This document shows, in pieces, positions 30,755-36,340 of a stretch of DNA of 36,340 nt. Every line of letters begins with the position of its first letter. Positions within the stretch are counted from its first letter, which is position 1. The notes beneath the pieces were generated by a model. It made no database searches. It was not told where the DNA came from and saw nothing but the letters and a program-made list of their open reading frames with translations. The translations under genes were made by a program, and so were the position numbers. Source of the DNA: Patescibacteria group bacterium (GTDB taxonomy: Bacteria; Patescibacteriota; Patescibacteriia; SG8-24); assembly GCA_028714475.1 (NCBI GenBank), contig JAQTNC010000013.1:1-36340 (forward strand), in the 5' to 3' direction.

Positions 30755-31768
30755 ATGGAACGCCCCCGTTTCGAACAACCACCCAGCCAGCCGAACGAGA
30801 ACCAGCCGCCACGCGAACAGCCGTTCGAGCGCATTTTCGGGCTGACGGAGGAAATGGAGGGGCCGGTCCAGGAAGAGACCAAGACGCTTTTTCTTGACCA
30901 GACGGAAGTCGAGGACGAGCTGGAGAAGACGACCGATGAAATCGAGACCATCGAGGCCGTCATCGAAGCGTTGCCGGGTTTTATCGGCCGCTATGGTGGG
31001 CGACCCTTGCCTTTCACTCCGGAGCATGTCCATTTGATTGAGGGCTCTCCACCTCCCGGCATGAATTTGGAGGCGATCGATTATGATACCGACACCCAGA
31101 ATGTTCGCTTTCTAATGCGTCCTGGTGCCGAAATACCTAACCTAGTCCTCGCGCATCACACCGCTCATGAGTTTCTGCACTGGCTGTCTTTTCACTCGGC
31201 CCAGCTGAAAGAAGGCGAGATTGCCGTTCGGCGAGCGGGTTTCCTGATGGCCGGCGCCAAGAAGGACGTGATTTACGGCACAGCCATCAACGAAGCCATG
31301 AACGAAGAATTGGCCAAGCGGCTTATCCGGCAAATGGAAAAAACTAGCGAGGTGGTCATGGACGATGTCCGCCGACGACAGGCCATGGCCGGCGAATTTG
31401 GGCTTACCGAGCCGGCGTCAACTGAAGATTTGTTGCTGATAAATCATTTGGACAAGGAGGATTACGCCTCCCCGGTTCAAATACACAGGTTCACCTATCC
31501 CGATGAACGCGCCGTCTTGAACGCCGTCATTGACGGCATCGCCGCCAAACACGCCGACCGTTTCACAGATCGCGAACAGGTTTTCGACGTCTTCGCCCGC
31601 GCCTACTTCTCCGGCCGCCTGCTCGAAATCGGCCACTTGATCGAAGGTACCTACGGCAAAGGTTCGTTCCGAAGGCTTTGGGAAGGCGAGGATATCACAA
31701 AACAACAAGCGGCCCTGCCGCCATCCGAACAGGCTCCTAGCGGCGAGCATCTGGAAAACGCGGCGTGA
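30755..31768 (+). CDS. Putative gluzincin-type zinc metallopeptidase
   Basis: 337 residues. H138-E139-F-L-H142 is an HExxH zinc site in AHHTAHEFLHWL; the helix INEAMNEELAKR about 40 residues later supplies Glu ligands (E180 or E184), as in gluzincins. The first 75 residues are polar, rich in Gln, Pro, Glu, with a possible coiled coil (EVEDELEKTTDEIETIEAV). No signal peptide is seen, so it is probably cytosolic. The peptidase domain is not assigned to a known family. The start at 30755 lies just after the repeat, without a clear ribosome site. Confidence 0.7.
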   Translation: MERPRFEQPPSQPNENQPPREQPFERIFGLTEEMEGPVQEETKTLFLDQTEVEDELEKTTDEIETIEAVIEALPGFIGRYGGRPLPFTPEHVHLIEGSPPPGMNLEAIDYDTDTQNVRFLMRPGAEIPNLVLAHHTAHEFLHWLSFHSAQLKEGEIAVRRAGFLMAGAKKDVIYGTAINEAMNEELAKRLIRQMEKTSEVVMDDVRRRQAMAGEFGLTEPASTEDLLLINHLDKEDYASPVQIHRFTYPDERAVLNAVIDGIAAKHADRFTDREQVFDVFARAYFSGRLLEIGHLIEGTYGKGSFRRLWEGEDITKQQAALPPSEQAPSGEHLENAA

Positions 31769-32931: not shown

Positions 32932-33390
32932 ATGGCAAATGAAGAGAAAAAAGCGACGGCCGCTCCGACGGCGGAGGGCACAGCCAAGGCTGGCAAAGCC
33001 GGCACGCGCGGCGCCCGCGGCAAGAAGCGCAAACAGGCGCGGTCCGTCCCGACCGGCCGGGCTTACGTGCACGCTAGTTACAACAACACCATCGTCACCC
33101 TGACCGACGCCAACGGCAACGTCCTGTCCTGGTCGAGCGCCGGCGTCGTCGGCTTCAAGGGGCCGAAGAAAGCCACGCCGTACGCGGCGAGCGTCATCGT
33201 CCGCGACGCGGTGGAGAAGGCGGCGGACTACGGCCTCCGTGAGGTCAACGCCTTCGTGAGCGGCATCGGTTCGGGCCGCGAGGCGGCGGTGCGCGCCCTG
33301 CACGCCAACGGCATCAACGTCCTGGCCATCAAGGACGTGACGCCCATCCCGCATAACGGCTGTCGCGCGCCTAAGCCGCGCCGCATCTAA
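32932..33390 (+). CDS. rpsK: 30S ribosomal protein S11
   Basis: 152 residues; the S11 core begins near 40 (AYVHASYNNTIVTLTDANGN) and ends in the conserved DVTPIPHNGCRAPKPRRI. The first about 38 residues are an Ala/Lys/Gly-rich extension, longer than in E. coli (129 residues in total). S11 lines the 30S platform near the E site. Confidence 0.98.
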   Translation: MANEEKKATAAPTAEGTAKAGKAGTRGARGKKRKQARSVPTGRAYVHASYNNTIVTLTDANGNVLSWSSAGVVGFKGPKKATPYAASVIVRDAVEKAADYGLREVNAFVSGIGSGREAAVRALHANGINVLAIKDVTPIPHNGCRAPKPRRI

Positions 33391-34057: not shown

Positions 34058-34948
34058 ATGGAAGACATCCTTCTTCCGTCCAAAATCGAGGTCATTCCCG
34101 GCGAAAACGAGCGCCGCGGCACCCTCGTGGTCGAGCCGTGCTATCACGGTTACGGCACGACGATCGGCAACGCCCTGCGCCGCGTCCTGCTTTCCTCCCT
34201 GCCCGGCGCCGCCGTCACGGCGGTCAAGATCAAGGGCGCCAGCCACGAATTTTCCGCCTTGCCCGGCGTCAAGGAAGACGTCCTGGAGATTGTCCTGAAC
34301 CTCAAACAGCTCCGCCTGCGCCTTTACGGCGACGGGCCGGTGCGCCTTTTTTTGCGCTCCAAGGGCGAGGGCGAGGTGACGGCCGCTGACATCGAGGCAA
34401 ATTCGGACGTGGAAATCGTCAATCCGGAACTGCGCCTCGCCACCCTGACCGAAAAGAAGGCCGAACTCGAGATGGAGATCATCGTCGGCGTCGGCCGCGG
34501 CTACGTCACGACCGAGGAACGCGGCAAGGAAAAATCCGAGCTCGGCGTCATCGCGATTGACGCGCTTTATTCGCCGGTCCGCGAGGTCGGCTACCGCGTC
34601 GAGCCGGTGCGCGTCGGCCGAATCACCGACTACGACAAGCTGGTCATGGAAATCGAGACCGACGGTTCGATGTCGCCGGCCGAGGCCGTTGACCAGGCCG
34701 TGAAGGTCCTGCTCGACCATTTCTCGCTCATCCTGAATCGCGGTGTCGTCGAAGAGGCGGCCGCCGTGGAGGAAGCCGTCGCCGCCGTGTCCGCACCCAA
34801 GGAGGCCGAAGCCCCATCTGCCGCCGAGGAAGAGCCGGAGATGGAGGAAGAGCCGGCCACCCTGGAACCGGAAGCCGAGGAACCTAAGAAAAAGCCCAGG
34901 GCCAAGAAGGCTGACGGCGAGAAGAAGACGGCCAAGAAGAAGAAATAA
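34058..34948 (+). CDS. rpoA: RNA polymerase alpha subunit lacking the C-terminal domain
   Basis: 296 residues. The N-terminal domain (1 to about 228) is complete, with the dimerisation segment NALRRVLLSSLPGAAV (about 31-46) and the beta/beta' contact regions (VEPVRVGRITDYDKL, DHFSLILNRG). Where E. coli alpha continues into the alpha-CTD (IEELELSVRAYNCL...), this protein has about 65 residues of acidic, Ala/Glu/Pro-rich sequence ending in KKADGEKKTAKKKK. The next 46 bases before rplQ leave no room for an alpha-CTD. The enzyme would lack contact with UP elements and class I activators. Confidence 0.96.
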   Translation: MEDILLPSKIEVIPGENERRGTLVVEPCYHGYGTTIGNALRRVLLSSLPGAAVTAVKIKGASHEFSALPGVKEDVLEIVLNLKQLRLRLYGDGPVRLFLRSKGEGEVTAADIEANSDVEIVNPELRLATLTEKKAELEMEIIVGVGRGYVTTEERGKEKSELGVIAIDALYSPVREVGYRVEPVRVGRITDYDKLVMEIETDGSMSPAEAVDQAVKVLLDHFSLILNRGVVEEAAAVEEAVAAVSAPKEAEAPSAAEEEPEMEEEPATLEPEAEEPKKKPRAKKADGEKKTAKKKK

Positions 34949-35726: not shown

Positions 35727-36340
35727 ATGACTGAAACGAAAAAAACAACTGATGAGAAGAAGGCCGCGCCGCGTCGTCGCCCCGCCGCGCCCAAAGCCGC
35801 CGGAGCCGCCGTCGTCAAGCGCGCACCGGCCAAGGAGCCGCACCGCGCCGCTCCGCGGGCGAAGAAAGAGGAATCCGGCGAAGAGACGAAGATCATGTCG
35901 GTGGCTCCGAAAACGGCCAAAGCCAAGGTGGCGGAGAAGCCCACCCGCGCCGTGCCGGCCGGCGAGTACATCTACGCCTTGGGCCGCCGCAAGTCGGCCA
36001 TTGCCCAGACCCGCCTGTATCATGGCGGCAAGGGCGTAATCACGGCGAACGGCCTGCCAGCCAAGGAGTATTTCAAGGTCCAGCAGTATGTCGATCGCCT
36101 GTATGTGCCGCTCAAGGCGGTCGGCCTCGACAACAAGGTGAACATCGACTTGCGCCTGACCGGCGGCGGCCTGAACGGGCAGTCCGATGCGGCCATGCTC
36201 GGCATCAGCCGCGCCTTGGTCAAGGACAACGAGGAGTATCGCCCGACGCTCAAGAAGATGGGCCTCATGACCCGCGACCCGCGCGAGAAGGAACGCAAGA
36301 AATACGGCTTGAAGAAGGCGCGCAAGGGCCCGCAATGGGC
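35727..36340 (+). CDS. rpsI: 30S ribosomal protein S9, cut by the window end
   Basis: 204 residues are visible. The S9 core starts near 80 (YIYALGRRKSAIAQTRLYHG) and runs to GLKKARKGPQWA, so only a few residues are missing. The first about 75 residues are an Ala/Pro/Lys/Arg-rich extension absent from typical S9. S9's C-terminal tail contacts the P-site tRNA anticodon. Confidence 0.96.
   Translation, partial: MTETKKTTDEKKAAPRRRPAAPKAAGAAVVKRAPAKEPHRAAPRAKKEESGEETKIMSVAPKTAKAKVAEKPTRAVPAGEYIYALGRRKSAIAQTRLYHGGKGVITANGLPAKEYFKVQQYVDRLYVPLKAVGLDNKVNIDLRLTGGGLNGQSDAAMLGISRALVKDNEEYRPTLKKMGLMTRDPREKERKKYGLKKARKGPQW

What the first reader, a model, noticed from the sequence alone, without database searches (positions are those of the whole stretch)
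34058..34948. RNA polymerase alpha subunit without an alpha-CTD
The conserved N-terminal domain is followed by an acidic and Lys-rich tail instead of the alpha-CTD, with only 46 bases to rplQ. Seen directly: no alpha-CTD sequence in any frame between. Inference: promoters here cannot use UP elements or class I activators. The tail may instead bind proteins or nucleic acid.
Basis: partly seen in the sequence, partly recalled or inferred. Interest (0 to 1): 0.7.

Follow-up and report, generated by a model that had tools for sequence, protein, structure and literature searches.

The report
RNA polymerase alpha with swapped tail
In this tiny-genome bacterium (an Uhrbacteria-like member of the Patescibacteria) and its whole class, RNA polymerase has lost the alpha domain that normally grips DNA upstream of promoters, and most members carry instead a floppy acidic-then-basic tail, sometimes ending in a DNA-binding "AT-hook" motif, that may do part of the same job.

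Summary
Observation confirmed. RpoA (34058-34948, 296 aa) has a complete alpha-NTD and no alpha-CTD: no Pfam PF03118 hit in the protein and none in any frame of the whole 1.41-Mb genome. rplQ starts 46 bp downstream. The loss is class-wide: none of 134 RpoAs read from the class has an alpha-CTD. It happened at least four times in Patescibacteria (single origin rejected, p_AU 0.002). Alpha-CTD loss in 'Parcubacteria' has been stated in one published sentence; I found no description of what replaced it.

New here: where alpha-CTD is gone, the acidic linker usually remains and a basic block follows it. Basic tails occur in 82 of 134 class members and 19 of 21 outside it, but in 0 of 57 linkers of alpha-CTD-bearing RpoAs. 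In 25 tails the basic block holds the AT-hook core RGRP (0.01 expected from shuffling). That is the acidic-plus-AT-hook anatomy of M. xanthus CarD. The window's own tail is the Lys-rich version without RGRP.

Best reading: a disordered nucleic-acid-binding tail partly substitutes for alpha-CTD's grip on DNA. Binding is inferred, not shown. 26 of 134 class members have almost no tail, so it is dispensable in some lineages. 'Cannot use UP elements' holds only for alpha-CTD-mediated recognition.

The parts
34058..34948 (+). rpoA: RNA polymerase alpha subunit without alpha-CTD (296 aa)
34058..34741 (+). alpha-NTD (residues 1-228), folded, complete
   Evidence: Pfam RNA_pol_L 26-222 and RNA_pol_A_bac 56-172; confident model matching solved alpha-NTDs
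34742..34885 (+). acidic disordered segment (residues 229-276), corresponding to the acidic alpha-NTD/CTD linker of other bacteria
   Evidence: pLDDT <50 from residue 233; linkers of alpha-CTD-bearing RpoAs are acidic, mean net -6.6 in Patescibacteria and -5.2 elsewhere
34886..34945 (+). Lys-rich end KKKPRAKKADGEKKTAKKKK (residues 277-296) where alpha-CTD would be
   Evidence: 11 K and 1 R of 20; highest Lys count among 362 proteins of the genome
34995..35345 (+). rplQ (ribosomal protein L17), next gene, 46 bp downstream; no room for an alpha-CTD
   Evidence: Pfam Ribosomal_L17 2.8e-32

Best explanation
This is the normal, functional alpha subunit of a lineage (the window's Patescibacteria class; closest named relatives are Candidatus Uhrbacteria) whose ancestor lost the alpha-CTD. 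The alpha-NTD still assembles the polymerase. The acidic linker that used to hold alpha-CTD was kept, and a short basic block evolved at its end. I infer that this disordered tail, one per alpha so two per polymerase, leaves the enzyme near the upstream promoter DNA and binds it mostly without sequence preference (Lys-rich version, as in the window) or with an AT-rich minor-groove preference (AT-hook version in relatives), partly replacing alpha-CTD's grip; the acidic part may tune that binding. Sequence-specific UP recognition and class I activation through alpha-CTD are gone, and strong promoters rely on a consensus -35/-10. Shown: loss of the domain, class-wide extent, repeated independent loss, recurrent acidic-then-basic layout, recurrent RGRP. 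Inferred: DNA (rather than RNA or protein) binding, position on the promoter, functional replacement.
For: No alpha-CTD in protein or genome. None of 134 class RpoAs has one. Outside the class 239 of 265 sampled phylum genomes have PF03118; 20 of the 26 others have a located RpoA clearly without it. Best tree: class monophyletic and next to alpha-CTD-bearing Doudnabacteria; at least 4 changes forced by well-supported branches; one clade of all alpha-CTD-less RpoAs rejected, p_AU 0.0019. Basic or hook tails in 82/134 class RpoAs and 19/21 alpha-CTD-less RpoAs outside it; no linker of 57 alpha-CTD-bearing RpoAs has a basic block. 79 tails have both blocks, acidic first in 72. RGRP in 25 of 154 tails versus 0.012 expected. 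In 23 hook genomes the DNA pattern for K-R-G-R-P plus a basic-type codon occurs 35 times in all frames, 21 of them at rpoA. Lys-rich in a 59% GC genome with mostly AAG codons, so not AT drift. Class rRNA promoters have exact TTGACA in 27 of 30, versus 11 of 29 in alpha-CTD-bearing relatives. Precedents: CarD's acidic segment plus RGRP hooks binds AT-rich DNA upstream of a promoter (PMC4374960); the WhiB7 AT-hook binds just upstream of -35 while WhiB7 is bound to sigma region 4 (PMC3905903).
Against: No binding was tested. 26 of 134 class RpoAs have fewer than 16 tail residues and 21 are acidic only, so the tail is not universally needed. The window's tail has no RGRP and no Pfam AT_hook match; the four hook tails scanned score below Pfam's cut-off. 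Basic and even KRGRPK tails also occur on ribosomal protein S9 in some relatives, where RNA is the likelier target. Lys content of class tails falls with GC (r = -0.48). The stronger -35 in rRNA promoters was not significant in the other alpha-CTD-less lineages (p 0.25-0.32). The independent-pairs test has too few pairs for significance.
Confidence: 0.5

Rival explanations
1. Simple reductive loss. alpha-CTD was lost because these organisms have few activators; the remaining tail is a decayed, weakly constrained linker with no specific role.
For: 26 of 134 class members keep almost no tail and 21 only an acidic stub; tail sequences diverge fast; alpha-CTD loss is known in reduced endosymbionts (PMC8321222).
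Against: Independent lineages converge on a basic block after the acidic linker and on the exact RGRP motif far beyond chance; the window's Lys-rich end is exceptional in its own genome.
Confidence: 0.25
2. RNA or ribosome tail. The basic tail binds nascent RNA or the ribosome (transcription-translation coupling) or keeps the polymerase in the nucleoid, rather than replacing upstream promoter contacts.
For: rpoA is co-encoded with ribosomal proteins, and S9 proteins of some relatives carry the same KRGRPK motif in an N-terminal tail; the window's S9 and S11 also have basic N-terminal tails.
Against: AT-hook RGRP is best known for AT-rich DNA minor groove (PMC4466236, PMC4374960); the block appears where a DNA-binding domain was lost.
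Confidence: 0.2
3. alpha-CTD function is supplied in trans by a separate alpha-CTD protein.
For: 29 of 286 class genomes encode alpha-CTD matches over the Pfam cut-off outside rpoA, many as stand-alone or sigma-region-4-fused proteins.
Against: None in the window's genome and none over the cut-off in about 90% of the class.
Confidence: 0.03
4. Assembly error or frameshift hiding an alpha-CTD.
For: None found.
Against: No alpha-CTD in any frame of the genome; same gene end in all relatives including single-contig genomes.
Confidence: 0.01

Closest known systems
Bacterial RpoA (alpha subunit; NCBIfam TIGR02027 / NF003519)
   Same: Complete alpha-NTD, gene order rpsD-rpoA-rplQ, above the curated cut-offs of both models.
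   Different: alpha-CTD missing; disordered acidic-then-Lys tail instead.
RpoA without alpha-CTD in Tremblaya and Hodgkinia (PMC8321222; the same paper says the loss is also present in Parcubacteria and in microalgal chloroplasts)
   Same: Domain absent, UP recognition by alpha-CTD lost.
   Different: There, erosion in degenerate endosymbionts; here a whole class with intact alpha-NTD and, in most members, a new basic or AT-hook tail. The paper's cited source for Parcubacteria (Nelson & Stegen 2015) does not mention RNA polymerase in its held main text.
Myxococcus xanthus CarD HMGA-like domain (PMC4374960)
   Same: Disordered acidic segment followed by basic RGRP AT-hooks on an RNA-polymerase-associated protein; this is the layout of the hook-bearing RpoA tails of relatives.
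   Different: A separate factor that binds the beta subunit and has four hooks; here the tail is part of alpha itself, with one hook or, in the window, none.
Mycobacterial WhiB7 AT-hook (PMC3905903)
   Same: AT-hook delivered by the holoenzyme to AT-rich DNA just upstream of -35.
   Different: Regulator bound to sigma region 4; not a core subunit.

Membership tests
Bacterial RNA polymerase alpha subunit (RpoA) | alpha-NTD with dimerisation and insert domains | tested here: met
   Pfam RNA_pol_L 5.6e-25 and RNA_pol_A_bac 6.2e-32; predicted fold matches solved alpha-NTDs
Bacterial RNA polymerase alpha subunit (RpoA) | alpha-CTD (PF03118) | tested here: not met
   No hit at E<=1 in the protein or the genome. 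alpha-CTD is not needed for RNAP assembly or basal transcription (PMC8321222), so I file it as an RpoA variant, not as a canonical two-domain RpoA
Bacterial RNA polymerase alpha subunit (RpoA) | Curated whole-protein cut-off of an RpoA model | tested here: met
   TIGR02027 274.5 bits vs 227.8; NF003519 293 vs 277
HMGA/CarD-like AT-hook domain (works like, not member of) | Disordered, acidic segment plus basic segment | tested here: met
   Window tail: pLDDT <50 over 233-295; 17 D/E of 45, then 11 K and 1 R of 20
HMGA/CarD-like AT-hook domain (works like, not member of) | RGRP AT-hook core | tested here: not met
   Absent in the window; no Pfam AT_hook match. Present in 25 other alpha-CTD-less RpoAs, four of which were scanned and score 9.7-16.4 bits, below the 17.4-bit cut-off
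HMGA/CarD-like AT-hook domain (works like, not member of) | Binding to AT-rich DNA minor groove | not testable with these tools
   Needs a binding assay

The most novel reading that the evidence does not exclude
In several Patescibacteria lineages the RNA polymerase alpha subunit exchanged its folded UP-element-binding domain for an HMGA-like tail (acidic linker plus Lys block or AT-hook) built into the core enzyme, a repeatedly evolved substitute for alpha-CTD.
Probability: 0.4. Interest if true: 0.8.

Novelty: new variant of a known kind. Interest (0 to 1): 0.62.

Why it matters
alpha-CTD is a main hub of bacterial promoter regulation. A whole class that lacks it shows that a broad cellular lineage, not only degenerate endosymbionts or plastids, can run without it. 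The recurrent appearance of a basic or AT-hook tail in its place suggests a simple answer to what part of alpha-CTD is hard to give up: a flexible grip on upstream DNA. It makes directly testable predictions about promoter architecture and in vitro transcription in organisms that are mostly uncultured.

Tried and rejected
Separate alpha-CTD gene in this genome: rejected. Assembly error: rejected. Lys-rich tail as AT-drift: rejected for the window (59% GC, mostly AAG codons). Tail as a genome-wide habit: rejected for this genome (1 of 362), but some ribosomal proteins also carry basic tails. Single loss for all Patescibacteria: rejected (p_AU 0.0019). UP-element loss read from promoter AT profiles of the own genome: -35/-10 sites are clear (105 of 162 regions vs 24 shuffled), AT just upstream is near background with a small rise 10-20 bp before -35; I draw no conclusion. 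Class rRNA promoters show stronger -35 and more AT at 25-65 bp before -35 (p 0.0001 and 0.0015, uncorrected for relatedness), not significant in the other losses. A first pass of gene extraction ignored strand and was redone. A greedy longest-ORF gene call chose antisense frames and was replaced.

Full report
The gene. The ORF at 34058-34948 encodes a 296-aa RpoA. Pfam sees the two alpha-NTD domains and nothing significant after residue 222; NCBIfam RpoA models and solved alpha subunits align only to about residue 222-264. rplQ follows after 46 bp. PF03118 does not match anywhere in the own genome (1.41 Mb, 43 contigs, 100% complete) at E<=1, nor does a profile made from Patescibacteria alpha-CTDs at E<=10 (no positive control for that profile). 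An AlphaFold model from 12 sequences gives a confident alpha-NTD matching solved alpha-NTDs and a disordered 233-295.

Extent. In 28 genomes (own, same family, order and class), RpoA ends without alpha-CTD. Of 286 class genomes, 274 gave an RpoA; I read 134 different ones in full and none has an alpha-CTD. The 47 PF03118 matches in 39 class genomes lie, wherever I could compare with a listed rpoA position, at other places than rpoA, and the 30 I read are not RpoA. One weak match (G463:C33, 277-aa frame, 8e-6) could not be placed because no rpoA was found in that genome. The nearest named relatives are Candidatus Uhrbacteria, then Magasanik-, Buchanan-, Falkow-, Veblen- and Kerfeldbacteria, all without alpha-CTD; a Doudnabacteria, a Paceibacterota, one of four loci named Moraniibacteriota and 40 of the other 41 loci in the L112-L153 set have it (the exception, L120, is titled Patescibacteria). 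Equating the class with ABY1 is from my own knowledge.

Repeated loss. Outside the class 239 of 265 sampled genomes have PF03118. Of the 26 without, 21 gave an RpoA; 20 are clean losses and one (L190) carries a diverged alpha-CTD-like end. On a tree of the alpha-NTD (71 rows) the presence/absence label needs 6 changes, at least 4 forced by starred branches; holding all alpha-CTD-less RpoAs together is rejected (p_AU 0.0019). Deep branches are only moderately supported, so the exact number is uncertain.

What stands in its place. Linkers of alpha-CTD-bearing RpoAs are acidic (mean net -6.6 in Patescibacteria, -5.2 elsewhere) and none of 57 has a basic 12-residue block. alpha-CTD-less tails in the class: 60 basic, 22 with RGRP, 21 acidic only, 26 shorter than 16 residues, 5 other; outside the class 18 basic, 1 RGRP, 2 acidic (one of them L190). 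Of 79 tails with both an acidic and a basic block the acidic one comes first in 72. RGRP occurs in 25 tails against 0.012 expected from shuffling each tail; these fall into 13 separate groups on the larger tree, though relatedness and weak support mean fewer independent gains are possible. Four hook tails give Pfam AT_hook as their only match, at 9.7-16.4 bits, below the cut-off of 17.4. In 23 hook genomes the encoding pattern occurs 35 times, 21 at rpoA; others include S9 N-terminal tails and a recombinase-like end. Association of loss with basic tail on independent pairs goes one way only but has too few pairs for significance; the 71-row subset was partly hand-picked, so the class-wide counts are the ones to use.

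The window's tail. It is the Lys-rich version: 17 D/E of 45, then 11 K and 1 R of 20, the most Lys-rich C-terminus and the only acidic-then-Lys one among 362 proteins from 436 kb of the genome (gene calls by a home-made codon model). All 10 members of its family that were read have acidic tails of 37-68 residues ending in a Lys block (in two of them the block is too short or too mixed for my basic-block threshold). The genome is 59% GC and most of the Lys codons are AAG.

Promoters. The only 16S gene found has an upstream site TTGACA-17-TATACT with a GC-rich -37 to -58 and A-tracts further up. In the class 27 of 30 rRNA promoters have exact TTGACA, against 11 of 29 in alpha-CTD-bearing relatives and 8 of 15 in other alpha-CTD-less lineages. 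This fits compensation by a stronger -35 in the class but is not independent evidence, because the class is one lineage and the other losses do not differ significantly.

Mechanism. alpha-CTD binds the AT-rich minor groove upstream of -35 (established knowledge). CarD joins an RNAP-binding part to a disordered acidic segment with RGRP hooks and binds AT-rich DNA upstream of a promoter (PMC4374960); WhiB7 brings an AT-hook to AT-rich DNA just upstream of -35 while bound to sigma region 4 (PMC3905903); H-NS and Lsr2 use AT-hook-like motifs (PMC4466236). By analogy I infer that the RpoA tails hold upstream DNA. RNA or ribosome binding is the main rival after plain reductive loss.

Prior knowledge. 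PMC8321222 reports alpha-CTD absence in Tremblaya and Hodgkinia and says in one sentence that it is also present in Parcubacteria, citing a paper whose held main text does not mention RNA polymerase. I found no description of the tails or hooks in the held open-access library; subscription papers and preprints were not searched.

Noticed in passing
L030, L031, L032, L033, L035, L036, L039, L041 (class genomes): Proteins of about 270-470 aa with a sigma-70 region 4-like helix-turn-helix followed by an alpha-CTD; two were confirmed by Pfam (Sigma70_r4 4e-21 and 1e-16, RNA_pol_A_CTD 3e-20 and 8e-21). Several keep residues that align with the E. coli DNA-binding set (R265, N268, G296, K298; numbering from my own knowledge). 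They sit in a class whose RpoA has lost alpha-CTD.
   Followed up: partly
L029, L034, L044, L045, L046, L053: Small stand-alone alpha-CTD proteins of about 100-160 aa in class genomes.
   Followed up: partly
L315 (G000:C4), upstream of 16S: rRNA promoter TTGACA-17-TATACT with GC-rich -37 to -58 and A-tracts about 11 bp apart further upstream.
   Followed up: partly
L400, L401 (G330 and G388, downstream of rpoA): Ribosomal protein S9 with a basic N-terminal tail carrying KRGRP(R/K)K, in the same genomes whose RpoA tail holds KKKRGRPKK.
   Followed up: partly
window 35727-36338 and 32932-33390: S9 and S11 have long basic low-complexity N-terminal extensions.
   Followed up: no
window 30755-31768: 337-aa protein with no significant Pfam match, upstream of infA.
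   Followed up: no
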